Positions 3,025-43,099 of a DNA stretch of 64,000 bases are shown piece after piece. A program made the position numbers and the translations under genes. Below the pieces are notes generated by a model that searched no databases, was not told where the DNA came from, and worked only from the letters and a program-made list of their open reading frames with translations. Numbering within the stretch: position 1 is the first letter of the stretch; each line of letters opens with the position of its first letter. The stretch is taken from assembly GCF_016464365.1 (NCBI RefSeq), contig NZ_JADCUC010000003.1, positions 248,001 through 312,000 on the forward strand, given 5' to 3'. The stretch is from Sandaracinobacteroides hominis (GTDB lineage: Bacteria > Pseudomonadota > Alphaproteobacteria > Sphingomonadales > Sphingomonadaceae).

Positions 3025-3447
3025 TTACGAACCCGAATCCCGCAAAGCAACCGGCGCGAACCCGGCCGCATCCGGCTTCCACGCCGAAATCCGCCCATCC
3101 GCCACGATCAGCCACAGCCAGCCCATGTCCGCCACGCCCGCCCGGTCCGTCGCACTCGGCTGCGCCCGCCCGTTCGGATGCGAATGCCAGCAGCCGATCA
3201 ACCGCAGCGGCCCCGCCCGGTCGCGCCGATGCGCATCGAACAGGTGCGCCGGCTCGATCTCGAACCGATGCCAGGGTTCCCCGGATACATTGGCGGCAAC
3301 GCTGGCCTCCACGATCCGCCCCTCCACCCCAAACAACAGCCCGCAGGCCTCATGCCCCCCCGCCTCGGCTGCGGCCGCCAGCATATCCGCCACCGCCCGT
3401 GCGGAAATCGCCACCCTTGAACCTGCGTAGGAAATCCCAACATCCAT
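3025..3447 (-). CDS. M67 (JAB/MPN, Mov34-like) metallopeptidase
   Basis: The protein has about 140 residues. It carries the JAMM signature: an upstream Glu in the EACGLLFG block, HSHP in GCWHSHPNG, then Ser and Asp in PSATDRA. These coordinate the catalytic zinc. Bacterial members are thought to cleave isopeptide or thiocarboxylate-linked small proteins, or to serve in sulfur-carrier processing; the partner here is unknown. The start at MDVGISYAG was chosen; an upstream ATG at 3474 would overlap the divergent pseudouridine synthase gene. Only a few bases separate the two divergent starts. Confidence 0.85.
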   Translation of the reverse strand: MDVGISYAGSRVAISARAVADMLAAAAEAGGHEACGLLFGVEGRIVEASVAANVSGEPWHRFEIEPAHLFDAHRRDRAGPLRLIGCWHSHPNGRAQPSATDRAGVADMGWLWLIVADGRISAWKPDAAGFAPVALRDSGS

Positions 3448-12057: not shown

Positions 12058-12062
12058 AGCAC

Positions 12063-13364
<1,302 letters not shown>

Positions 13365-28028: not shown

Positions 28029-29060
<1,032 letters not shown>

Positions 29061-29125: not shown

Positions 29126-29659
29126 TCAGGCGGCAGTCGCTCCCCGAGAGAGCGCAACAACCCCACCGCGCGCCACTTCCACCAGCCCCACTTCGCGCAT
29201 CAGCTCGATGAACTGATCGACCTTCTGGGTGCTTCCGGAAATCTCGAACACAAAGCTCTGCGTGGTTGTATCCACCGGCCTTGCCCGAAAGATGTCGGCC
29301 AGCCGCAGCGCTTCCACCCGCTTCTCGCCGGTGCCGGCCACCTTCACCAGCGCCAGCTCGCGCTCGATATGCGGCCCCAGCTCGGAAAGATCGGTCACCG
29401 AATGCACCGGCACCAGCCTGTCCAGCTGCGCCGTGATCTGGTCGATCACCCGCCGCGGTCCGCTCGTCACGATGGTAATGCGCGAAACGCTCTCGTCCTC
29501 GGTAACGTCCGCCACCGTCAGGCTCTCGATATTATACCCGCGCGAGGAGAACAGGCCGGTAATCCGCCCCAACACGCCCGCCTCATTGTCGACCAGGATA
29601 GACAGCGTATGCCGCTCAGGCGCTTCCTCGGGGAACAGATTCTTCACTTTCGCCACCAT
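29126..29659 (-). CDS. ilvN: Acetolactate synthase small (regulatory) subunit
   Basis: This 177-residue subunit controls the catalytic IlvB subunit and mediates feedback inhibition by valine. The ACT domain starts with HTLSILVDNEAGVLGRITGL at about 17-36. The C-terminal ALS_ss_C domain follows. The ATG at 29659 overlaps the ilvB stop as ATGA, so translation is coupled. The longer upstream frame lies within ilvB and was rejected. Confidence 0.96.
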   Translation of the reverse strand: MVAKVKNLFPEEAPERHTLSILVDNEAGVLGRITGLFSSRGYNIESLTVADVTEDESVSRITIVTSGPRRVIDQITAQLDRLVPVHSVTDLSELGPHIERELALVKVAGTGEKRVEALRLADIFRARPVDTTTQSFVFEISGSTQKVDQFIELMREVGLVEVARGGVVALSRGATAA

Positions 29660-31410
29660 CACACCAGCGCCTCTGCCGATTTGTCCACCTTGCCCTCGAC
29701 CTGCTCCGGCCCCAGGATCATGTCCACATGGCTCGCCCCCGAAGGGATCATCGGGAAGCAGTTCGCGTGGCGTTCCACCATGCAATCGACAAACACCGGC
29801 CCGTCATACGCCAGCATCTCGGCGATGCCCGCGTCCAGCTGGTCCTCGGTCTCGATACGGATGCCCTTCCAGCCATAGGCCTCTGCCAGCTTCACGAAAT
29901 CGGGCAGGCTGTCGGAATAGCTCTGCGAATGCCGCCCTTCATAGGTGAGGTCCTGCCACTGGCGGACCATCCCCATATATTCGTTGTTCAGCACGAACAC
30001 CTTCACCGGCAGCCGGTATTGCGACGCCGTCCCCAGCTCCTGGATGTTCATCTGGATCGACGCCTCGCCGGCGATATCCATCACCAGCGCCTTCGGATTG
30101 CCCAGCTGCGCGCCGATGGCGGCCGGCAGGCCATAGCCCATCGTTCCCAGCCCGCCGCTCGTCAGCCACTTGTTCGGCTGCTCGAAATCGAAATGCTGTG
30201 CCGCCCACATCTGGTGCTGGCCGACTTCGGTGGTGACGATCGGATTGCGCTTGTGCGTCGCTTCCCACAGCCGCCGGATGGCGTGCTGCGGCTGGATCTT
30301 TTCGCCCTTCTGGCTGAACGCCAGCGACTGGCGCGCGCGCCAGCCCTTGATGCGGTTCCACCAATCCTCCTGCACCGGCGCCTTCAACCCGCGCGCCCGC
30401 CACAGCTTCACCACATCTTCCAGCACATGCCCCACATCGCCCTCGATCGTCAGGTCGACGCGCACCGTCTTGTTGAAGCTGGAGGGGTCGATATCGACAT
30501 GGATCTTGCGGCTGTTGGGGCTGAATCCGTCCAGCCGGCCGGTCACCCGGTCGTCAAAACGCGCGCCCAGGCACAGCATCAGGTCGCACTGGTTCATCGC
30601 CAGATTGGCCTCATAGGTGCCGTGCATCCCCAGCATTCCCAGAAACTGCGGGTCGCTTGCCGGAAAGGCGCCAAGGCCCATCAGCGTCGAGGTGACGGGC
30701 GCCTTTGTCAGCCGCGCCAGATCGCGCAGCAGGGTCGAGGCGCCCGGACCTGCGTTGATCACCCCGCCGCCCACATAGAGGATCGGCCGCTCGGCGCTGG
30801 CCAGCATCTCCATCGCCGCCTCGATGGCGGCAAGGTCGCCCTTCACCTTCGGGCGATAGGTCTTGTGCTCGATCTTGCCCGGCTTCAGATAGCGGGCGGT
30901 CGCCACCTGCACATCCTTCGGAATATCGATCACCACCGGGCCGGGGCGGCCCGAAGTTGCGATATGAAACGCCTCGTGGATGATCGGACCCAGCCGCGCC
31001 GTGTCCTTCACCAGATAGTTGTGCTTGGAACAGTGGCGGGTGATCCCCACCGTGTCGCATTCCTGAAAGGCGTCGCTGCCGATCAGGTGGGTAGCAACCT
31101 GCCCCGTCAGCACCACGATCGGGATCGAATCCATCAGCGCGTCGGCGATGCCGGTCACGGCATTGGTGGCGCCGGGGCCGGAGGTCACCAGCACGACGCC
31201 GGGCTTGCCGGTGGAGCGCGCATAGCCTTCCGCCGCATGCACGGCGGCCTGCTCGTGCCGCACCAGAATGTGGCGAATGGCGGTCTGCCTGAAAATTGCA
31301 TCGTAAATGGGAAGAACCGCACCGCCCGGATAGCCGAACACGGTGTCGACCCCAAGGTCGATCAACGCGTTCACCAGGATATCAGCGCCGCTCAGCTCCC
31401 GGCCGTGCAT
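29659..31410 (-). CDS. ilvB: Acetolactate synthase large (catalytic) subunit
   Basis: This 583-residue ThDP enzyme makes acetolactate or acetohydroxybutyrate from pyruvate, the committing step of branched-chain amino acid synthesis. The catalytic Glu lies in [18 protein letters not shown]. The ThDP/Mg motif in the third domain begins [18 protein letters not shown] before ATG 31410 fixes the start. The ilvB-ilvN-ilvC order is the usual one. The motif uses GEA where many family members have GDG/GDA, a small variation at a metal-binding loop. Confidence 0.96.
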
Positions 31411-31670
31411 TCCAAGGCTCCTTTTCCTTTTGCCGCTGCTGCATATGCAGCTAGGCTCCGCCCGCGGGGTGCGGGCAAGAGCGGGCGGCTTAGGTAGGCC
31501 AATGCCGGCTGTCAACGCCAATTATGACATGGCGTTGCGAAAACGGTCTCTTCGTTGTATTTTTATGTCTCAAACGGGCGACTTTGAACATGATTCAAAG
31601 CCGCCCGCTTGCCACTGGTCAAGAATCACCAACCCTGATGATTTGCTACGCAACGCTTACCAAAAAAGCG

Positions 31671-32822
31671 TCAGGCGATGCTTATCCTCAGGCCCGCATT
31701 GGCGCGGCGGCGACGAGCGGCAACGCCCACAAGGCCGAAGCCCGCAATCAGCATCGCCCAGGTCGCGGGCTCAGGCACCGCTTCGGAGAACATCGCCGGG
31801 TCCAGATTGCCCTGGTAGGTGCCCAGATGCACCTGACCGCCCTGGTTGAAGCTGCCGGCCACGATCGAGCCTTCCAGATCGGCGCGGTTTGCGAGCGCCG
31901 CATAGGGGGCCAGGATGGAGCCGTGCGTCATACGGTTGACGTTCAGCCCGGTCGCGTCCGAGAAGTTCCAGATGATGTTGTCGTTCAGCGCCGCATTCAG
32001 GCCGCCGATCGAGTTGGCGTTCCAGTCATACTTGCCGTCACCGGTGATGTTGATGAGGATCGTCATCGCCGGGTCCGACACCTTCATGTCGAACTCGCCG
32101 AAGTTGAAAAGGCTGTCGGACATGTTGAAGACCGAATAGCCCTTGCCATTGTCGACGGCGTTGAAGGTCAGACGGCTGCCGAACACGCTGGTCGAGTTGC
32201 CGGCGGTGGCTTCCAGCCCGGCCAATTCCACCGAAAGCGCCTTCAGGTCGGCCGACAGCTGCGACTGTTCGGCGGTGAGGCCGGCAACCAGCGGCTGGGT
32301 GAAGCTGTCGCCCAGGTTGAATTGCGAGGAGGCGCCGTTCGAGTTGAAATTGCCTTCCTTCTTGCCGCCGGCCTGAATGGTCGAACCGTTCGAGCCGTTG
32401 ATGTTCTTCGCAACGCCGCCGATCTTCACCGTCGCGCCCTGGGCGTTCAGGTTCACGCCGCTGTTCAGGCTGCCGCCCACGATCAGGCCGGGCTTGGAAG
32501 CGGCGTTGGTCCCGTTGTTCAGGTTGATGCCGTTGCCGGTCACATTGCCCACCACGGTCAGCGTAGCGCGCGACGAATCCGTCGCGCCCTGCGATCCGCG
32601 ACCGGTGCCGAACGTGGAACCGTTGCTCAGGTTGCCGCCGACGAAGGTCTTGCCTTCGACATTGGAGCCGCCCTTCATGTCGCCCAGCACGATCAGGTTC
32701 ACTTCGCGCATGGCTTGCAGGCCGGCGAGCGGGTCACCCACGGGAGCGGCTGCCATTGCAGGCATCGAAACGGTGGAAACGAGCGCGCTGGCAAACACGC
32801 CAGCAAGAAGGCGGGAGTTCAT
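31671..32822 (-). CDS. Choice-of-anchor A-family secreted protein with PEPxxWA-CTERM signal
   Basis: The protein has 383 residues. A signal peptide covers about 1-25. The mature domain begins near MREVNLIVLGDMKGGSNVEG, the hallmark opening of choice-of-anchor A (ice-binding/adhesin-like beta-helix) proteins, and has many Asn/Gly-rich turns. The C-terminal signal is VPEPATWAML, a hydrophobic helix and ARRRRANA with a short tail. GAGGA upstream selects ATG 32822. It is likely surface-displayed and may act in adhesion or biofilm. A palindromic TTAAC element lies about 83 bp upstream. Confidence 0.9.
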   Translation of the reverse strand: MNSRLLAGVFASALVSTVSMPAMAAAPVGDPLAGLQAMREVNLIVLGDMKGGSNVEGKTFVGGNLSNGSTFGTGRGSQGATDSSRATLTVVGNVTGNGINLNNGTNAASKPGLIVGGSLNSGVNLNAQGATVKIGGVAKNINGSNGSTIQAGGKKEGNFNSNGASSQFNLGDSFTQPLVAGLTAEQSQLSADLKALSVELAGLEATAGNSTSVFGSRLTFNAVDNGKGYSVFNMSDSLFNFGEFDMKVSDPAMTILINITGDGKYDWNANSIGGLNAALNDNIIWNFSDATGLNVNRMTHGSILAPYAALANRADLEGSIVAGSFNQGGQVHLGTYQGNLDPAMFSEAVPEPATWAMLIAGFGLVGVAARRRRANAGLRISIA

Positions 32823-32904
32823 TTGCATCCTCATGTCGGGAGACGGCCTCTTGCCGCCACCAATCATGTGGATATTGACGGCCCGATTTTCCAGACCCTG
32901 CGAA

Positions 32905-32921
32905 CGTTAACCAATGTTACG
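32905..32921. promoter_or_regulatory. CGTTAAC-CAAT-GTTACG element upstream of PEP-CTERM gene
   Basis: The near-palindrome CGTTAACCAATGTTACG lies 82 bp upstream of the choice-of-anchor A gene. It closely resembles the reverse of the palindrome at 24095-24113. It also contains TTAACC, a CtrA-half-site-like word. Confidence 0.4.
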
Positions 32922-32927
32922 GCCGCT

Positions 32928-33968
32928 CTACAGGCGTAAAAACGCCCTGTTGCGACGCCGTGCTGCAACCCCTACTGCCCCGAAGCCGGCAAGCATAAGA
33001 CCCCATGTCGCTGGTTCGGGAACTGAAGCGATTCCAATCTGTTCTGCGACGCGCACGGCAATTGCCCGCTGCACGTCGGTGGTTACATGGATGCCGTCGA
33101 AACTCAGATATCCGGTGCAGTCGATATTTGGCGATGGCGTCTCTCCAACCAGGCAGGGCGTCACGAAATCCAGTGTTGCCGGCAGGCCGAACTGGGTGGG
33201 ATCGGCCAACAGATCGTTGAAGAAATCGAAATAGTCGAAGCGATAGAGGCTGGAGCCGAGCAGGTCGAAACCGGACTGCGCGGCATCCAGGCTGGAGTTG
33301 AGCAGACCCTGCAGGAACTGCCCTTCCACTTCGGTCGGGTTCGGCACGCCGGCGATCAGGATATGCTTGGCGCCAGCCGAGGCCAGCCCCAGCGCCACGC
33401 CGGTCATGTTCTGCACATAGGCGGTCTGCACCGCGGAAATGGCGGCCGCCTTGTCGGCGGGCGAAAGACCGGGATCAGCGCCGATCTCCTGAATGTAGTT
33501 CACATCATTGTTGCCGAAGTTCAGCACATAAAGCGCGCCGGCATCGACGGTCAGGCCGAAAGTCGCCAGATAGCCCTGATAGAAGGCGACCTGTGTCGGC
33601 AGGCCGGGGATGGTGCCCAGTGGCTGCACATCGTCGCCCGAAGCACGTGCGCCGCCGACGGCGAAATTGGTTGCGCCCAACGTGAAGGGCGGCGGCACCA
33701 CCGCGGCGCCGACATTGAAGGCTTTGGTGGGCCTGCCGAAATTCGCATAGCCCAGATAATCGATCCAGGTCGGCCCGTCGGAGAAGCGGCCCTGCCAATA
33801 GCCCTGCGAGGCGGGCGCGAACGCGCCGCCGGTCGCCCGGTTCACAGCGCCCGCATCAACGAAACTGTCCCCGAAGATCACGAACTGCGATGGCGTGAAC
33901 GCGGCCTCGGCAGCGGTCGGCAAGGCGACGACAAGCAGCGCCGATGCCAGCATGGCAAATCTCTTCAT
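32928..33968 (-). CDS. SGNH/GDSL esterase-lipase with PEPxxWA-CTERM signal
   Basis: This 346-residue exported hydrolase has a signal peptide at about 1-23. Block I is FGDSFVDAG (catalytic Ser in GDS), the block III GNND appears in NFGNNDVNYI, and block V is FDGIHVTTD (catalytic Asp and His). The enzyme probably hydrolyses ester bonds in lipids or acetylated polysaccharide outside the cytoplasm. The protein ends VPEPATWGLM, hydrophobic helix, ARRRNRAF. GGGGGAGA upstream fixes ATG 33968. TTAACCAT lies about 60 bp upstream. Confidence 0.9.
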   Translation of the reverse strand: MKRFAMLASALLVVALPTAAEAAFTPSQFVIFGDSFVDAGAVNRATGGAFAPASQGYWQGRFSDGPTWIDYLGYANFGRPTKAFNVGAAVVPPPFTLGATNFAVGGARASGDDVQPLGTIPGLPTQVAFYQGYLATFGLTVDAGALYVLNFGNNDVNYIQEIGADPGLSPADKAAAISAVQTAYVQNMTGVALGLASAGAKHILIAGVPNPTEVEGQFLQGLLNSSLDAAQSGFDLLGSSLYRFDYFDFFNDLLADPTQFGLPATLDFVTPCLVGETPSPNIDCTGYLSFDGIHVTTDVQRAIAVRVAEQIGIASVPEPATWGLMLAGFGAVGVAARRRNRAFLRL

Positions 33969-34027
33969 GCGCGATTCTCCCCCGAAACCCTCATCGGAGG
34001 CTCTCACTTTGCCTGGCACTCCGCAAG

Positions 34028-34035
34028 ATGGTTAA
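34028..34035. promoter_or_regulatory. TTAACCAT element (minus strand) upstream of SGNH hydrolase
   Basis: ATGGTTAA on the plus strand reads TTAACCAT on the minus strand. It lies 59 bp before the SGNH-hydrolase ATG, within the 74-bp gap to miaA. It is identical to the octamer at 286-293. Confidence 0.35.
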
Positions 34036-34042
34036 TCCTGAT

Positions 34043-34909
34043 TCAGGAATGCCGCGGCCAATCCCCGGTCTGGTTACGCGCCCAGGTCGCCTGCCGCTTG
34101 GCATATTGGCGGGTGTCCAGCTTCCACCGCTCGATGGCCTCCGCTTCGGACAATTCACCCGCCAGCAGCGCCAGCAGCGGCGGCACGCCGATGGCGCGCA
34201 TCACCGGCAGCGCCGGCGGCAGCCTGCGCGCGGCCAGCCGCTCCACTTCGGCCAGCGCGCCTGCCCTCCACATCGCCTCGATGCGGCTATCGATGCGCTG
34301 CACCAGCACGTCACGGGGAACCTCTACCACCAGCGGCTCCAGCTCCACCTCGTCCAGCAGGCCGCCCTGCGGAGAGGCCAGCTGCCAATCGGCCAGCGAT
34401 CGGCCGGTGGAGCGGATCACCTCCAGCGCGCGGGCGTTGCGCTGGGTATCGTTGGCGTGAAGGCGCGAAGCCATGGCCGGATCCTCTGCCTCCAGTGCCG
34501 ACCGCACATCCAGAAGCTGGCGAACATTTGCCCGGACTTCCTGGGATATCGGCGGAACGGCGGCGATGCCCTCCAGCAGCGTGCGCAGATAGAGGCCGGT
34601 GCCGCCGACGAGGATCGGCAGCAGCCCGGCCGCATGGGCGGCGGCGATTTCCGCGCGCGCCAGTTCGGCCCAGCGGGCGGCGGTGCAGGCCTCCGCGCCA
34701 TCGATGGCGCCGAACAGGCGATGCGGGGCCTGCTGCATTTCCGCCGCGGAGGGCCGGGCCGAGAGGATGGAGAGGTCGGCATAGACCTGGCTGGCGTCGG
34801 CGTTGATGACCACGCCTCTCCGCTCAGCGGCCAGCTTCAGGGCCAGCGCCGACTTGCCGCTGGCGGTCGGGCCTGCAATGACGGCCAGCGGAGGCCTTAA
34901 CCCTGACAT
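34043..34909 (-). CDS. miaA: tRNA dimethylallyltransferase
   Basis: This 288-residue enzyme transfers a dimethylallyl group to A37 of tRNAs that read UNN codons. The P-loop is AGPTASGKSALA at about residues 12-23. DASQVYADL and LVGGTGLYLRTLLEG are conserved MiaA blocks. The ATG at 34909 shares the bases CATG with the divergent serB ATG, so the two genes have no intergenic space. The long upstream reading frame crosses serB and was rejected. Confidence 0.96.
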   Translation of the reverse strand: MSGLRPPLAVIAGPTASGKSALALKLAAERRGVVINADASQVYADLSILSARPSAAEMQQAPHRLFGAIDGAEACTAARWAELARAEIAAAHAAGLLPILVGGTGLYLRTLLEGIAAVPPISQEVRANVRQLLDVRSALEAEDPAMASRLHANDTQRNARALEVIRSTGRSLADWQLASPQGGLLDEVELEPLVVEVPRDVLVQRIDSRIEAMWRAGALAEVERLAARRLPPALPVMRAIGVPPLLALLAGELSEAEAIERWKLDTRQYAKRQATWARNQTGDWPRHS

Positions 34910-35795
34910 GCTGATCTGCACCCTGATTTCACCCACCGGCTTGTCGCAGGCCGATATCGATGCCGCAAGCAATGCCCTCGGTTCGATGGGCGGAATCCTT
35001 TCCGCCGAAGTGGCGCTGGACCCGCCGTTTGCGACCGATCTGGTCGTGCGCGGGCTCAGCAAGTCTGCGGCTCGGACGTTGCTGGAGGCTCTGCCGGGCA
35101 TCGATGTCGTCGTGCAGCCTGCCGGCGGCGTGCGGCGGAAAGGGCTGCTGGTGGCGGACATGGACTCCACGATGATCGGGCAGGAATGCATCGACGAACT
35201 GGCGGATTTCGCCGGAAAGAAGGCGGAGATCGCCGCGATTACCGAGCGCGCCATGCAAGGGGAACTGGACTTTGCCGAGGCGCTGGATGCGCGGGTTGCG
35301 GCTTTGGCGGGGCTGGAGGCGGATGCCATTCGGCAATGCCTGGAAGAGCGGATTTTCCTGACGCCGGGCGCCCGTACCTTGATCCAGACCATGAAGGGGC
35401 TTGGGGCGCGGACCGTGCTGATTTCGGGTGGGTTCACGGCTTTTACGGAGACGGTGGCTTCGTTGATCGGGTTTGACCGGCAGGTTGCGAACTTGCTCCA
35501 TGTTGAGGCTGGCAGGCTGACCGGGACTGTCGGAAAGCCGATTGTGGATTCTGCGGTGAAGCGGACGACGCTGGTTGCGGAGCGGGAGGCTTTGGGATTG
35601 GCGGAGGAGGCGACGCTGGCAGTGGGCGATGGGGCGAACGACATTCCCATGCTGGAAGCTGCCGGGCTGGGCATTGCCTATCATGCGAAGCCCAAGGCAG
35701 CAGCGGCGGCCGACGCGGCCGTGCGCGTCGGCGACCTGACCAGCCTGCTATGGGCGCAGGGGATTCCCCGCTCGGAGTGGACTATCGACCAGTAG
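34908..35795 (+). CDS. serB: Phosphoserine phosphatase
   Basis: This 295-residue HAD-family phosphatase makes serine from phosphoserine. The nucleophile motif is DMDSTMIGQE (two Asp) at about 85-94, the second motif is LISGGFT, and the third is GDGANDIPML. The N-terminal 75 residues form an ACT-like regulatory region. The start overlaps the miaA start. Base composition changes inside this gene: the first 100 bases are C-rich and the later part is strongly G-rich. The 3' end overlaps the convergent S10 gene by 14 bp. Confidence 0.96.
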   Translation: MLICTLISPTGLSQADIDAASNALGSMGGILSAEVALDPPFATDLVVRGLSKSAARTLLEALPGIDVVVQPAGGVRRKGLLVADMDSTMIGQECIDELADFAGKKAEIAAITERAMQGELDFAEALDARVAALAGLEADAIRQCLEERIFLTPGARTLIQTMKGLGARTVLISGGFTAFTETVASLIGFDRQVANLLHVEAGRLTGTVGKPIVDSAVKRTTLVAEREALGLAEEATLAVGDGANDIPMLEAAGLGIAYHAKPKAAAAADAAVRVGDLTSLLWAQGIPRSEWTIDQ

Positions 35796-37317
35796 TTCCC
35801 TGGCGGATGAAGCCGCGGACGTCGTCCGTCAGCTTCACCAGATCGGCTTCACGGACGTACATCATGTGGCCGGCATCATAATAATGATATTGGATGCGGT
35901 CCTGCGGGATGCCGGTGCGCTGCAGCGAATATTCGGCGGCGAAGAAGGGCGTGGCGAAATCATACCAGCCCTGCCCCACGAAGACGCGAAGCCCTGAATT
36001 CTCGCGCAGCGCCTTGCCGATATTGGGGGCGAGGTTGAGATAGGCGTTGTCGTCGCGGCCGCCGATGCGCCAGTCCCAGTCGCTGACGCCGCCGATGGTG
36101 ACATATTGCTTCGGCGTATCGAACTTCAGGTCTTCGCGGGCATAGGCGTTCATCGCCGCGGTATAGCTGGCATCGATGCCGTAGAAGCTGGGATCGTTGT
36201 CAGGCCCCTCGCCGGCGTTGTCGTAGTCCTTGCCGGTATAGCGGGAATCGAGGCGGCCGACGGTGACTCCGCGATCGCGCAGCAGCTCCTTGTAGAAGCG
36301 GTCGGGGACGACGCGGAGATCGGCTTTTTCCAGATAGTCTTCGGAAAGGCCGGTGTAACGGGCGAGCTGGGTGCGGATCTGCGCGCGTTCGGCGGCGGGG
36401 AGCTTCTGGCCCCTGGCGAGCGCGGTCAGATAGGGGCCGATTGCCCACTGCCGGGCTTCCTCGACGAAGGCGGCGACGTCTGCCGGCTTGTTGGCGACCT
36501 TGTTGTGATACCAGGCGGTGGCGGCCATCGAGGGCAGGTTCGTCACATAGACCAGCTCGTTGCCGGGCGCCTCTGAGCCGAGGGCGAAATCGAGCACGGT
36601 GGAGATGAGGATGATGCCGTTCAGGCCGACATCATTGTAGCTGCCCTCCAGCTCCTTCACGAGCGCAGCGGAGCGGGTGGTGCCATAGCTTTCGCCGCCG
36701 ATATATTTCGGGCTGTTCCAGCGGTTGTTGGTGCTGAGCCATTTGCGGATGAACTGATCGATGGACTTGGCGTCTGCCGTGACGCCCCAGAAGGTCTTCG
36801 GATCGGTATCGCCCAGCGCGCGGGAGAAGCCGGTGCCGACGGGATCGATGAAGACGATATCGGTGACATCGAGCAGGCTGTGCGGGTTGGCGATGAGCGG
36901 ATAGGGGGGCGCGCCGTCATCGCGGGCGTCGCTGGGGATGGCGACGCGCTTGGGACCGAAGGCGCCCATGTGCAGCCAGAGCGAGCCGGAGCCGGGGCCG
37001 CCGTTGTAGAGGAAGGTGACGGGGCGGTTCGTGTCCTTGCCGTCCTTTACATAGGCGGTCGAGAAGATGGCAGCGGTGGGCTTGCCCTTCGCGTCGGTCA
37101 GATAGGTCTCGCTGGCGGTGGCGGTGTAGCTGATCGACTTGCCGTTGAAGGTCCCGGAGTGCTTTGTCACCGAGACATTGGGCGGCGGGATTTCGGCAGG
37201 CGCTTCCTTGGCGGCATCGGCTTTCGCATCGGGTTTTCCCTGTGCGTGCAGCGGTGCGGTGGCAAAGGTGGCGGCGAGGCCGGCGGCGAAGATGGGTGCG
37301 ACGAGTTTCTGGATCAT
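35782..37317 (-). CDS. S10-family serine carboxypeptidase, secreted
   Basis: This 511-residue exported peptidase removes C-terminal residues from peptides. A signal peptide covers about 1-25 (ends LHAQ). The oxyanion segment is YNGGPGSGSLW, the nucleophile Ser is in GGESYGTTR, the Asp is in QGWYDFATP and the His in YDAGHMMY. This is a complete serine-hydrolase triad. The gene ends within the last codons of convergent serB. A parS-type palindrome lies about 65 bp upstream of its ATG. Confidence 0.94.
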   Translation of the reverse strand: MIQKLVAPIFAAGLAATFATAPLHAQGKPDAKADAAKEAPAEIPPPNVSVTKHSGTFNGKSISYTATASETYLTDAKGKPTAAIFSTAYVKDGKDTNRPVTFLYNGGPGSGSLWLHMGAFGPKRVAIPSDARDDGAPPYPLIANPHSLLDVTDIVFIDPVGTGFSRALGDTDPKTFWGVTADAKSIDQFIRKWLSTNNRWNSPKYIGGESYGTTRSAALVKELEGSYNDVGLNGIILISTVLDFALGSEAPGNELVYVTNLPSMAATAWYHNKVANKPADVAAFVEEARQWAIGPYLTALARGQKLPAAERAQIRTQLARYTGLSEDYLEKADLRVVPDRFYKELLRDRGVTVGRLDSRYTGKDYDNAGEGPDNDPSFYGIDASYTAAMNAYAREDLKFDTPKQYVTIGGVSDWDWRIGGRDDNAYLNLAPNIGKALRENSGLRVFVGQGWYDFATPFFAAEYSLQRTGIPQDRIQYHYYDAGHMMYVREADLVKLTDDVRGFIRQGTTGR

Positions 37318-37381
37318 ATTGGCTGGATTGCACCGCCGCGCGCGCAGCGCAAGGCCCCATCGACTGATACCATTATGGTAA

Positions 37382-37399
37382 TTGTTCCACGTGGAACAA
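37382..37399. other. parS (ParB-binding) site
   Basis: TTGTTCCACGTGGAACAA is a perfect 18-bp palindrome. Its inner 16 bp, TGTTCCACGTGGAACA (37383-37398), match the bacterial chromosomal parS consensus TGTTNCACGTGNAACA at every position. It lies in the 206-bp gap between two genes, upstream of the S10 peptidase. The parA and parB genes are not in this window. I saw no second full match. Confidence 0.85.
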
Positions 37400-37523
37400 A
37401 TCCAACAATATTGGGCTGATTTTGTACAGGATCAAACGCTTGCACCCGACTGCGTAGGAGAAAGTTACAAGATTCCACCGTTTGCCTTGTATCTACGCCG
37501 ATCCCATGGCTGATCTGTGTTGC

Positions 37524-38262: not shown

Positions 38263-39774
38263 CTAGGCCAGTGCCTTTTTCAGTAGTTCATTGACCACAG
38301 CCGGATTAGCCTTCCCGCCCGACGCCTTCATCACCTGCCCGACGAAGAAGCCGAAGAGCTTGTCCTTGCCTGAGCGGTATTCGGCCAGCTTGTCGGGGTT
38401 GGCTGCCAGCACTTCGGCGATGGCGGTTTCCAGTGCTCCGGTGTCGCTTACCTGCTTCAGGCCGCGGGCTTCGGCGATGTCGCCGGGGTTTTCGCGGGTT
38501 TCGAGCATGATCTCGAACACCTGCTTTGCCAGCGGGCCGGAGAGGGTGCCGTCTGCCATCAGGGCGAGGAGTTCGCCGCCTTGGGTGGGGGTTACAGGGC
38601 TGGCGCTGATGTCGAGATCCAGCTTGTTGAGGGCGCCGAAGAGGTCGCCTGTCATCCAGTTGGCGGCGCGTTCGGCTACGTCGATTTCCGGCTTGCCCTG
38701 CCGTCTGGCGCTGTCGGCCAGCAGCGTTTCGAACCAGCGGGCGTGTTCGGCGTCTGCGGTGAGGACGCCGGCGAGATAGGGGCTGAGGGCCAGTTCATTC
38801 TCATAGCGGGCGCGCTTGGCGGCCGGGAGTTCGGGGAGGCTCGCCTTGCATTCGGCGATGAATTCCTCGGTCAGTTCCAGCGGCAGCAAGTCCGGCTCCG
38901 GGAAATAGCGGTAGTCGTGCGCGTCTTCCTTGGAGCGGAGCGAGCGGGTTTCCTGGGTTTCGGGATCGAACAGGCGGGTTTCCTGACGGATTTGGCCGCC
39001 GGATTCCAGGATTTCGACTTGCCGCTTCGCCTCGGAGACGATGGCCTGCTGGATGAAGCGGATCGAGTTGACGTTCTTGATCTCGCACCGCGTGCCGAAG
39101 GGGGCGCCGGGCTTGCGGACGGAGACGTTGACGTCGGCCCGCATCGAGCCTTCCTGCATGTTGCCGTCGCAGGTGCCGATGGCGCGCAGGATGGAGCGGA
39201 GCTGGCCGACATAGGCGCCGGCCTCTTGCGGCGAGCGGATATCGGGCTTGGAGACGATTTCCATCAACGCCACGCCGGAGCGGTTGAGATCGACGTAGCT
39301 CATTGTCGGCGACAGGTCGTGGATGGACTTGCCGGCATCCTGCTCCAGGTGGATGCGCTCGATGCCGACGGTGGTTTTCTGGCCGTCGTCGGTTTCAACC
39401 TCGATTGCGCCCTCGCCCACGACGGGGTGCTGGAATTGCGAGATCTGGTAGCCCTGCGGCAGGTCGGCGTAGAAGTAGTTCTTACGGTCGAAGCGGCTCC
39501 AGCGGTTGATCGTGGCGCCGAGCGCGAGGCCGGTGCGGACGGCCTGGGCGACGCATTCGCCGTTCAGCACGGGAAGCATGCCGGGCATGGCGGCATCGAC
39601 GAGGCTGACCTGGCTGTTTGGCTCTGCGCCGAATTCGGTGGCGGCGCCGGAGAAGAGCTTGGAATTGGACGTGACCTGGGCGTGGACTTCGAGCCCGATC
39701 ACGAGTTCCCAGGGGCCGGTCTGGCCTTCGATGGTATAGGTGCCGGCGGGGCCGTCGGTGTAGGGGGTGGTCAT
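38263..39774 (-). CDS. gatB: Asp-tRNA(Asn)/Glu-tRNA(Gln) amidotransferase subunit B
   Basis: This 503-residue GatB subunit binds and activates the mischarged tRNA so that the ammonia released by GatA can amidate it. The catalytic domain opens with [20 protein letters not shown], and the C-terminal YqeY-like tail ([20 protein letters not shown]) is present. The start at MTTPYTDG lies a little upstream of the conserved domain; no stronger alternative is seen. Unlike the usual gatCAB order, an acyltransferase gene separates it from gatA. Confidence 0.97.
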
Positions 39775-41075: not shown

Positions 41076-42554
41076 CTACCACCAATGTTGCGGTGCAGCA
41101 GTGAACCCGGCGCGGCATTCCAACGCATGGCCGGCATCCAGCACGCCCTGCTCGTCCAGCGGTTTGCCGATGATCTGCAGGCCGAGCGGCAAGCCTTGTG
41201 AATCGAGGCCGGCCGGAATCGACATCGCCGGGAGGCCTGCGAGCGAGGCGGGGACGGTGAAAACGTCGTTCAGGTACATGGCGATCGGGTCGGCGGACTT
41301 GGCGCCGAGGCCGAAGGCGGCGGTGGGGGCCGTGGGGGTGAGCAGCAGGTCGCAGCTTTCCCAGGCGCGCTCGAAATCCTGCGCGATGAGGGCGCGGACC
41401 TTTTGCGCCTTCAGATAATAGGCGTCGTAGTAGCCGGCGGAGAGGACGTAGGTGCCGATCATGATGCGGCGCTTTACCTCGCCGCCGAAGCCGGCTCCGC
41501 GGGTGGCCTCGTACATGTCGTTCAGGCTGCCGCCGGGGGGCGTGACGCGCTGGCCGTAGCGAACGCCGTCATAGCGGGCGAGGTTGGAGGAGGCCTCTGC
41601 CGGGGCGACGATATAGTAAGTGGGGAGTGCTTCCCTGGTGTGGGGGAGCGAGACTTCGACGATTTCGGCGCCGGCGTCCTTTGCCCAGTCTATGCCCTGT
41701 TGCCACAGCGCTTCGAGCTGCGGGTCCATGCCCTCCACGCGATATTCGCGCGGGATGCCGATGCGCTTGCCCTTGAGACTGCCGTTCAGCGCTGCCGCCC
41801 ATTGCGGGACCGGGGCGTTGATGGAGGTGGAATCCTTGGGGTCGTAGCCGGACATCGCCTCCAGCATGATGGCGCAGTCGCGGACGTCGCGGGCCATGGC
41901 GCCGGGCTGATCGAGCGAGGAGGCGAAGGCGATGACGCCCCAGCGCGAGCAGCGGCCGTAGGTGGGCTTGATGCCGGCGATGCCGGTGAAGGCGGCGGGC
42001 TGGCGGATGGAGCCTCCCGTGTCGGTGCCGGTGGCGGCCGCGCAGAGCCGGGCGGAGACAGCGGCGGACGAGCCGCCGGAGGAGCCGCCGGGGACGAGGT
42101 TTTCGCTGGAACCATCCGCGCGCCAGGGCGAGATGACCGGGCCGTAGGCGCTGGTTTCGTTGGAGCTGCCCATGGCGAATTCGTCTAGGTTCAGCTTGCC
42201 GAGCATGGCGGCGCCGGCTGCGAACAGCTTTTCGGTGACTGTGCTGTCGTAGCGGGGCTTGAAGCCTTGCAGGATCTTGCTGGCGGCGGTGGTTTCGACG
42301 CCCTTGGTGCAGAAGAGATCCTTGATGCCGAGCGGGATGCCGGCGAGCGGGCCTGCGGTGCCGGCCTTGAGGGCGGCGTCTGCGGCGTCTGCGGCGGCGA
42401 GGGCGTGATCGGGGGTTTCGACCAGGAAGGCGTTCAGTGGGCGCGCGGCTTCGACGGCGCTGACGTGCGCGGAGACGAGTTCGCGGGCGGAGAATTCGCC
42501 GGCGGCGAGGCCGGACTGCATCTTGGCGAGCGAGAGATCGGTGAGGGCGGACAC
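41076..42554 (-). CDS. gatA: Asp-tRNA(Asn)/Glu-tRNA(Gln) amidotransferase subunit A
   Basis: This 492-residue amidase-signature enzyme releases ammonia from glutamine for transamidation of tRNA. The catalytic Lys is in [13 protein letters not shown], and the Ser cluster lies in [13 protein letters not shown] and [13 protein letters not shown]. The GTG start shares one base with the gatC stop (TAGTG), giving translational coupling. The longer upstream reading frame crosses gatC and was rejected. Confidence 0.97.
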
Positions 42555-42841
42555 TATTCGATCACCTTCGGGACGGCGAAGAAGCCGTGCGCGGCCTCCG
42601 GGGCATTGGCGAGGACATCTTCGGCGATGTTGCCATCGGTGACGACATCGGCGCGCCATTCGCGGGTGATCGGCATCACCGCGTTCATCGGCTGGGTGTT
42701 GCCGGTTTCGACCGCCTGCAGCTGATCGATCCAGCCGAGGATATTGTTGAGCTCGCGCGTCATCTTCGCGCCCTCTTCCGGCGCCAGTTTCAGGCGCGCG
42801 AGACCCGCTACGCGGGCTACCATCTTGTCGTCTACTGCCAT
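42554..42841 (-). CDS. gatC: Asp-tRNA(Asn)/Glu-tRNA(Gln) amidotransferase subunit C
   Basis: This 95-residue subunit wraps around GatA and GatB and holds the complex together. The N-terminal [19 protein letters not shown], the [10 protein letters not shown] segment and the FFAVPKVIE end are typical. It is the first gene of the gatC-gatA run. With no separate glnS or asnS gene visible in the window, whether the complex acts on Gln- or Asn-tRNA cannot be told. Confidence 0.96.
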
Positions 42842-43099
42842 GGGAGGAGCGCCTAGCAGCGCGGGTGGGTTGGGGCAATTGGGGTTTGGGGTGTGAAGGG
42901 CGGAGGGGGATTGAGATTTTGTTGTCGCGGGGGAACGCTTCCGAAGTTTCGCGCCCCCCCTTTTCCGCGAGCTGCCCTTTGGTAGGAGTTGTCGGGGGTG
43001 ATTTGGCGTTCTGTCCTCAGATTTTCAAACTGCGCCGCATCGCTTGAGTGACGCGCTGACCCGTGTCATCTTGTTTGTGGCTTTGGCGGAGAGTGCAGA

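What the first reader, a model, noticed from the sequence alone, without database searches (positions are those of the whole stretch)
34900..37400. Strand-composition switch at about 35.0 kb next to a perfect parS: likely replication-origin neighbourhood
Left of about 35 kb the plus strand is C-rich whichever strand the genes use: 12061-12120 has C 26, G 12, and 2641-2700 (a minus-strand gene) has C 28, G 17. To the right it is G-rich: 35281-35340 has C 15, G 27, and 42361-42420 (a minus-strand gene) has C 16, G 30. The crossing falls inside serB (34921-34980 is still C 23, G 14). A change from negative to positive GC skew along the strand is the pattern of an origin, not a terminus. The perfect parS at 37.4 kb fits, since parS sites cluster near oriC. 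No clear DnaA-box cluster was found; a one-mismatch box (TGTGGATAT) lies at 32867-32875.
Basis: partly seen in the sequence, partly recalled or inferred. Interest (0 to 1): 0.75.

Follow-up and report, generated by a model that had tools for sequence, protein, structure and literature searches.

The report
parS-marked strand-composition switch, not main origin
The DNA strand bias really flips here beside a chromosome-partition site, but similar rises recur at other such sites around the chromosomes of this bacterial clade, so it looks like one of several secondary origin-like sites and not the main replication origin.

Summary
GC skew changes from -0.109 to +0.127 near 35 kb, whatever the gene strand. 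A perfect parS lies at 37383-37398. But parB, five of 13 parS and hemE are on another contig (C16), and each of the genome's 7 exact-parS clusters lies at a rise in skew. In this genome and seven relatives, 33 of 33 parS clusters fetched (32 exact, one one-mismatch) rise more than they fall within 4 kb, against half of 104 background centres; 26 of 33 go from negative to positive over 10-kb flanks, 7 do not. Secondary parS carry extra motifs (TGTWGGA boxes, ACC-N5-GGT) that main-cluster parS lack. The parS-plus-box pattern, in 7 of 397 family genomes, pointed to an unseen site in a complete relative where skew jumps from -0.20 to +0.22. A congener without this parS keeps the gene order with one skew sign, so 35 kb is no inversion or assembly junction. 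Best reading: secondary fork-divergence (origin-like) sites marked by a ParB-site element. Initiation is inferred, not shown; published reads of one relative could test it.

The parts
33500..37400 (.). zone of the GC-skew sign change (cumulative minimum 34367; about 3 kb left of parS)
37383..37398 (.). parS TGTTCCACGTGGAACA, perfect 16-bp palindrome
37368..37380 (.). TACCATTATGGTA palindrome, left part of the composite element (ACC-N5-GGT)
37401..37407 (-). TCCAACA = TGTWGGA box, 2 nt from parS
37318..37523 (.). stretch between the S10 peptidase gene and the next reading frame; holds the composite element
28029..29048 (-). ilvC, left synteny anchor
29659..31521 (-). ilvB (named from its G035 orthologue), left synteny anchor; negative skew here and in G005, positive in G035
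34043..34909 (-). miaA (IPP transferase), at the skew minimum
35782..37317 (-). S10 peptidase gene whose upstream region holds parS
38263..39770 (-). gatB (start approximate), right synteny anchor; positive skew here, negative in G005
41076..42878 (-). amidase gene, right synteny anchor

Best explanation
The 35-kb switch is one of several parS-marked places on this chromosome from which leading-strand composition diverges in both directions. The 37.4-kb parS belongs to a clade-specific composite element (TGTWGGA box, parS, ACC-N5-GGT palindrome). The most likely mechanism is that forks start, or restart, bidirectionally at such elements in a large enough share of cell cycles to leave a replication-type strand bias: ParB binds parS (inferred from sequence), an unknown factor binds the TGTWGGA boxes (inferred), forks leave in both directions (inferred from skew), and forks from neighbouring sites meet at variable places in between (inferred from the gradual decline between sites). 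Shown here: the rises, their coincidence with parS, the extra motifs, and the intact gene order across the window jump.
For: 33 of 33 parS clusters rise more than they fall within 4 kb, against half of 104 background centres; secondary only n=28, Mann-Whitney p=3e-10 (relatives share loci, about 21 distinct loci by my grouping); 26 of 33 go from negative to positive over 10-kb flanks. A site pointed to by the parS-plus-box pattern and fetched afterwards goes from -0.20 to +0.22. Window locus: G005 is collinear from 23.0 to 42.9 kb, no parS, skew -0.08 to -0.21 in every 2-kb bin; G002 is collinear, no parS, near zero. The bias is strand-specific at third codon positions whatever the gene strand. 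On C1, skew falls steadily from +0.12 after parS 121 kb to -0.12 before parS 358 kb, crossing zero near 249 kb by interpolation (midpoint 239.6 kb). TGTAGGA: 21 copies near secondary parS against 0.61 expected; 17 of 29 secondary parS but 0 of 21 main-cluster parS have a 7/7 box at 0-5 nt.
Against: No DnaA-box cluster at the window site. Seven of 33 clusters rise without changing sign over 10-kb flanks: G035 624504 and 732808, G000 C12:436867 and C1:120861 (positive on both sides; at these two the left side is near zero over 20 kb), G001 C19 and C21 and G005 C37 (negative on both sides); only 13 of 33 exceed the background 95% point. G035 624480, a one-mismatch parS with a 6/7 box beside the exact one, has no jump. 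Upward jumps without parS exist in G000, e.g. C1 about 75 and 858 kb, C12 about 70 kb, C15 about 188 kb, C16 about 95 and 363 kb, C19 about 134 kb. G001, without an exact parS at the orthologue of C1:358, still goes from GC3 -0.10 to +0.16 there (5 kb of that locus unread), and G005, also without, is less negative on the right (-0.40 to -0.15). Between parS 3129 and 3365 kb of G035 the profile is not a simple decline. The parS-free 584-kb contig of G002 is nearly flat, not sloping. G035 has three rRNA genes, so probably one rRNA operon and no obvious need for extra origins.
Confidence: 0.42

Rival explanations
1. Rearrangement history: upward jumps are old inversion or translocation ends, or relics of former origin positions, and parS sites are kept or selected there. 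No extra initiation occurs.
For: Upward jumps without parS exist; G000 C16 about 329-369 kb looks inverted against G002 and G001 and has a non-parS jump near 363 kb; G001 keeps a jump without an exact parS at one locus; some parS lie near synteny breaks in distant comparisons.
Against: Inversions would give falls at parS as often as rises: 0 of 33 clusters fall more than they rise. The window jump lies inside a gene order shared with G005, G002 and Thermaurantiacus. A parS-plus-box match led to a new jump.
Confidence: 0.27
2. ParB/SMC polarity: condensin loaded at parS travels outward and, through an unknown effect on mutation or selection, imposes strand bias without initiation there.
For: At the main locus the switch sits at parS (G000 about 327.3 kb, G035 3128-3131 kb, G001 16-18 kb), not at the hemE-side DnaA-like boxes, which lie about 57 kb right, 14 kb right and about 10 kb left of it. 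Bias fades with distance from some parS. In Caulobacter the zone that tolerates extra parS follows the native parS, not ori (PMC5815017, passages).
Against: No known route from SMC travel to third-codon-position bias (my knowledge). The main switch may simply mark an oriC beside parS. Two exact parS of G035 lie in unbroken positive skew.
Confidence: 0.18
3. This is the chromosome's main oriC neighbourhood.
For: Origin-type polarity and a parS about 3 kb away.
Against: The best ParB match, five of 13 parS, hemE and its upstream boxes are on C16; no DnaA-box cluster here; six other parS clusters of this genome show rises. In 8 complete relatives with both positions listed, serB is more than 1 Mb from hemE in 6 and about 0.24 Mb in 2.
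Confidence: 0.05
4. Chance or assembly artefact.
For: The own genome is a draft of 21 contigs.
Against: 0 of 2000 permutations; rises at parS also in a complete single-contig genome and in other drafts; gene order intact across the switch in relatives.
Confidence: 0.02

Closest known systems
Bacterial oriC region with parABS (Caulobacter, Bacillus, Pseudomonas types)
   Same: Neg-to-pos GC-skew switch beside a perfect parS.
   Different: Here the pattern recurs at several sites of one chromosome; the window site has no parAB nearby and no DnaA-box cluster.
Pseudomonas/Caulobacter-type parS (16-bp ParB site)
   Same: The same 16-bp palindrome; the exact string is in six papers of the held library (listing only), among them two on P. 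aeruginosa chromosome segregation.
   Different: Most secondary copies carry TGTWGGA boxes, and many an ACC-N5-GGT palindrome; main-cluster parS have no full box next to them.
Multiple chromosomal origins of archaea; single-chromosome Vibrio strains with two origins (PMC4595724, PMC6284228, search listing only)
   Same: Several divergence points on one molecule would be expected.
   Different: The Vibrio cases unite two known chromosomal origins; here the loci lie among conserved syntenic genes with a shared parS element, and initiation is not shown.
Upward skew jumps with gradual declines at eukaryotic replication origins (N-domains; recalled, no call)
   Same: Sharp rise at the site and near-linear fall to the next, best seen on C1 121-358 kb.
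   Different: Bacterial chromosome, 16-bp ParB site near the jump, and not every interval follows the shape.

Membership tests
chromosomal oriC neighbourhood | local neg-to-pos GC-skew switch | tested here: met
chromosomal oriC neighbourhood | only (or main) such switch of the chromosome | tested here: not met
   seven parS clusters with rises in G000, in sampled stretches
chromosomal oriC neighbourhood | cluster of DnaA boxes | tested here: not met
   10 boxes with up to one mismatch in 64 kb, 8.48 expected; no exact TTATCCACA in the window
chromosomal oriC neighbourhood | usual neighbours (parB with the parS cluster, hemE) | tested here: not met
   they are on C16
chromosomal oriC neighbourhood | read-depth maximum / initiation | not testable with these tools
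   no reads on hand
parS (ParB site) | 16-bp palindrome TGTTNCACGTGNAACA | tested here: met
   in G000 13 exact copies and one further site within two mismatches
parS (ParB site) | chromosomal ParB in the genome | tested here: met
   C16:322743-323231, 178.8 bits, beside five parS
parS (ParB site) | ParB binding | not testable with these tools
   needs ChIP or a binding assay
inversion or assembly junction | gene order broken at the switch | tested here: not met
   collinear in G005, G002, Thermaurantiacus
secondary replication origin | strand bias diverges from the site irrespective of gene strand | tested here: met
secondary replication origin | bidirectional initiation | not testable with these tools
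   replication profiling needed

The most novel reading that the evidence does not exclude
Sandaracinobacteroides-type bacteria replicate one chromosome from several origins: besides the main parS/hemE region, about six dispersed composite elements (TGTWGGA box, parS, ACC-N5-GGT) each start bidirectional forks and at the same time act as ParB/SMC sites, so replication and segregation are organised from many centres as in archaea and eukaryotes.
Probability: 0.33. Interest if true: 0.95.

Novelty: new variant of a known kind. Interest (0 to 1): 0.77.

Why it matters
Wild bacterial chromosomes are taught to have one origin and one skew minimum, with parS clustered at it. A clade in which dispersed parS sites sit at skew rises, most of them within a conserved composite element, either has several natural initiation sites on one chromosome or shows that ParB/SMC polarity can shape strand composition. 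Either would be new to my knowledge, and the question is directly testable with read depth.

Tried and rejected
Unique-oriC reading: rejected (main region on C16). Inversion or assembly junction at 35 kb: rejected by collinearity. Gene-strand or transcription cause: rejected. DnaA-box cluster in the window: chance level. A candidate oriC at C16 about 361 kb (DnaA-like boxes, two TGTWGGA boxes, a jump): not adopted, because its TGTAGGA stretch belongs to a repeat also seen at C12:165 kb (no jump) and C19:138 kb (mild rise), and gene order against G002 and G001 suggests an inversion. Degenerate parS plus box at the non-parS jumps: no convincing match. Degenerate parS without a full box (G035 3109906, 3135238, 624480): no jump.

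Limits: statistics use sampled stretches (2,945,025 bases), not whole genomes; orthologous loci are not independent. The flanks were chosen on either side of the visible switch. G001 C24:249001-254000 and G005 C29:63001-67000 were not read. Clusters tested at 14-20 of 33 offsets because of stretch ends: G002:C15, G004:C62, G004:C77; the two main clusters G028 and G001 at 29. G002:C8:193 was left out (contig edge). The main clusters of G004, G005, G105, G158 and G059 and the parS of G118, G195 and G086 were seen only as pattern hits, not fetched. The 28 secondary sites include the one-mismatch G035:232269. One row (C1:358324) was cut out wrongly by the script; later counts use another extraction.

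Literature: no paper linking parS to several skew switches turned up in the searches (listings; open-licence PMC only). PMC5815017: passages. PMC8407754: whole text. All others: search listing only.
Full report
WHAT IS THERE. The window is bases 248001-312000 of contig C15 of a 3.53-Mb, 21-contig draft. The nearest named relative is Sandaracinobacteroides sayramensis RS1-74 (locus L099; its serB coordinate matches handle G002). G035 is Sandaracinobacter sp. M6: the contig length 3,364,212 bp equals that in PMC8407754 (whole text). Plus-strand GC skew goes from a mean of -0.109 to +0.127 at 35 kb, 0 of 2000 permutations as good, cumulative minimum 34367. A perfect 16-bp parS lies at 37383-37398, upstream of an S10 peptidase gene.

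NOT GENES, NOT CHANCE. Pooled over six parS loci of this genome, with flanks chosen on either side of the visible switch, GC3 skew is -0.28 (+ genes) and -0.20 (- genes) to the left and +0.27 and +0.37 to the right; DNA outside the called genes goes from -0.08 to +0.10. That is the signature of replication-type strand bias, not of transcription.

NOT THE MAIN ORIGIN REGION. The best ParB match (178.8 bits) is at C16:322743. Five of the 13 exact parS copies lie at C16:324.7-327.3 kb, and hemE is at C16:384.9 kb with DnaA-like boxes upstream. At the main locus the GC3 sign change falls at parS: in G000 between the gene ending at 326970 (-0.24) and the one starting at 327342 (+0.49), with parS at 327300 (I take these genes for gidA and trmE from memory, no call names them). 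In G035 the switch (3128-3131 kb) is about 14 kb from the hemE-side boxes, and in G001 it is about 10 kb off on the other side. Either the main oriC is beside parS, or skew follows parS and not oriC; I could not decide.

THE PATTERN RECURS AT parS. The other parS of G000 were fetched with flanks: C1:121, C1:358, C12:437, C17:263 and C19:15 all show a rise, C19 weakly; at C1:121 and C12:437 the sign change lies some kb to the left, from values near zero. In G035, parS at 3128-3130, 1 and 2289 kb sit at sharp rises; 624.5 and 732.8 kb lie in positive skew on both sides. Seventeen secondary and three main clusters of G001, G002, G004, G005, G105 and G028 all have higher skew on the right than on the left. 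In all, 33 clusters (32 exact, one with one mismatch): the largest rise within 4 kb exceeds the largest fall in 33 of 33, against half of 104 background centres. Thirteen of 33 exceed the background 95% point. Mann-Whitney p=3e-12; secondary only (n=28) 3e-10. Over 10-kb flanks 26 of 33 go from negative to positive; the other seven are G035 624504 and 732808, G000 C12 and C1:121, G001 C19 and C21, and G005 C37. Relatives share loci, and by the alignments I count about 21 distinct loci. Weakest rises: G001:C26, G035:732808, G004:C77.

A COMPOSITE ELEMENT. Around the secondary parS (29 sites, 400 bp each side), TGTAGGA occurs 21 times against 0.61 expected and TGTTGGA 18 times against 1.37; TGTWGGA density is 1.65 per kb against 0.086 in the background, mostly within 100 bp. 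A full 7/7 box lies 0-5 nt from 17 of 29 secondary parS and 0 of 21 main-cluster parS. On the other side many carry an ACC-N5-GGT palindrome. In the window these are TACCATTATGGTA (37368-37380), parS (37383-37398) and TCCAACA (37401-37407). The parS-plus-box pattern is in 7 of 397 family genomes searched, 3 of 91 genera. TGTWGGA pairs without parS also occur in a dispersed repeat: C16:361, C12:165 and C19:138 kb.

A PREDICTION. That search also hit G035 at 232271, where the parS has one mismatch. I had seen only positive values at 150-162 and 340-352 kb. Fetched afterwards, the flanks go from about -0.20 to +0.22, GC3 -0.29 to +0.39. Against this, one-mismatch parS without a full box show no jump (3109906, 3135238, and 624480 with a 6/7 box).

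NO BREAK IN GENE ORDER AT THE WINDOW SITE. G005, same genus and without parS here, is collinear from window 23.0 to 42.9 kb, S10 peptidase included; its skew is negative in every 2-kb bin (-0.08 to -0.21). G002 keeps ilvC, ilvB, miaA/serB, gatB and the amidase gene in order (the S10 peptidase was not detected), has no parS and is near zero. Thermaurantiacus (L101) keeps the same order and is near zero. So the same genes in the same order have opposite strand bias on one side only in the genome that has parS. A second comparison is mixed: at the C1:358 orthologue G005 is negative on both sides (GC3 -0.40, -0.15), but G001, with no exact parS, still goes from -0.10 to +0.16. The jump therefore does not strictly need an exact parS, or outlasts it, or a degenerate copy lies in the 5 kb not read.

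SHAPE BETWEEN SITES. On C1 sampled values are +0.117 (160 kb), +0.047 (200), +0.006 (240), -0.079 (280), -0.111 (300-320) and -0.123 (338-358), between parS at 121 and 358 kb; zero is crossed near 249 kb by interpolation, the midpoint is 239.6 kb. C15 falls from +0.145 to -0.021 over about 125 kb to the right of the window. Other intervals are less regular, and upward jumps without parS exist. The parS-free 584-kb contig of G002 lies mostly between -0.08 and +0.03, with one sample at -0.207.

HOW IT MAY WORK. Divergence of leading-strand bias from a point normally means forks leave it in both directions. The simplest reading is initiation or restart at the composite elements in many cell cycles, with forks from neighbours meeting at variable places. 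ParB binding, the TGTWGGA-binding factor and initiation itself are inferred. Rivals are rearrangement history with parS kept at such ends, and an effect of ParB/SMC travel. In Caulobacter extra parS are disfavoured at mid-arm and the permissive zone follows the native parS, not ori (PMC5815017, passages), so dispersed parS in this clade are unusual in themselves.

NOVELTY. The library searches listed no paper on dispersed parS at several skew switches; they cover open-licence papers only, and I read listings. I rate it a new variant of a known kind, since initiation is unproven. If proven it would be categorically new for a bacterial chromosome that is not a fusion.

Noticed in passing
G035 232269-232294 (L260 and the end of L259): One-mismatch parS with a full TGTWGGA box at a sharp skew jump (-0.20 to +0.22); found by pattern, then fetched.
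   Followed up: yes
G000 C1:858 kb, C12:70 kb, C15:188 kb, C16:95 kb, C1:75 kb, C19:134 kb: Upward skew changes without a recognisable parS composite; cause unknown.
   Followed up: partly
G000 C16:329-369 kb: Segment beside the main parS cluster appears inverted against G002 and G001, with a non-parS skew jump near 363 kb.
   Followed up: partly
G000 C16:361.1 kb, C12:165.4 kb, C19:138.3 kb: Three copies of a dispersed intergenic repeat that contains TGTWGGA boxes but no parS.
   Followed up: partly
L082 7338-7517 and many places in G001, G005, G035: Dispersed repeat of about 180 bp with many matches per genome; copies lie close to parS at G001:C19:126092 and G001:C21:116536.
   Followed up: no
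L037 1061-1076 (G035): A perfect parS inside the mutS reading frame, about 3 kb from a skew switch.
   Followed up: no
hemE upstream in L033, L060, L197: hemE-side region with DnaA-like boxes, a likely oriC, lying 10-57 kb from the skew switch and on different sides in different genomes.
   Followed up: partly
window 31671-34019: Two adjacent PEP-CTERM proteins: an ice-binding-like adhesive domain protein and a GDSL lipase-like protein.
   Followed up: no
G002:C1:450001-462000 (L229): Isolated strongly negative skew (-0.207) on an otherwise nearly flat parS-free contig, perhaps an island.
   Followed up: no
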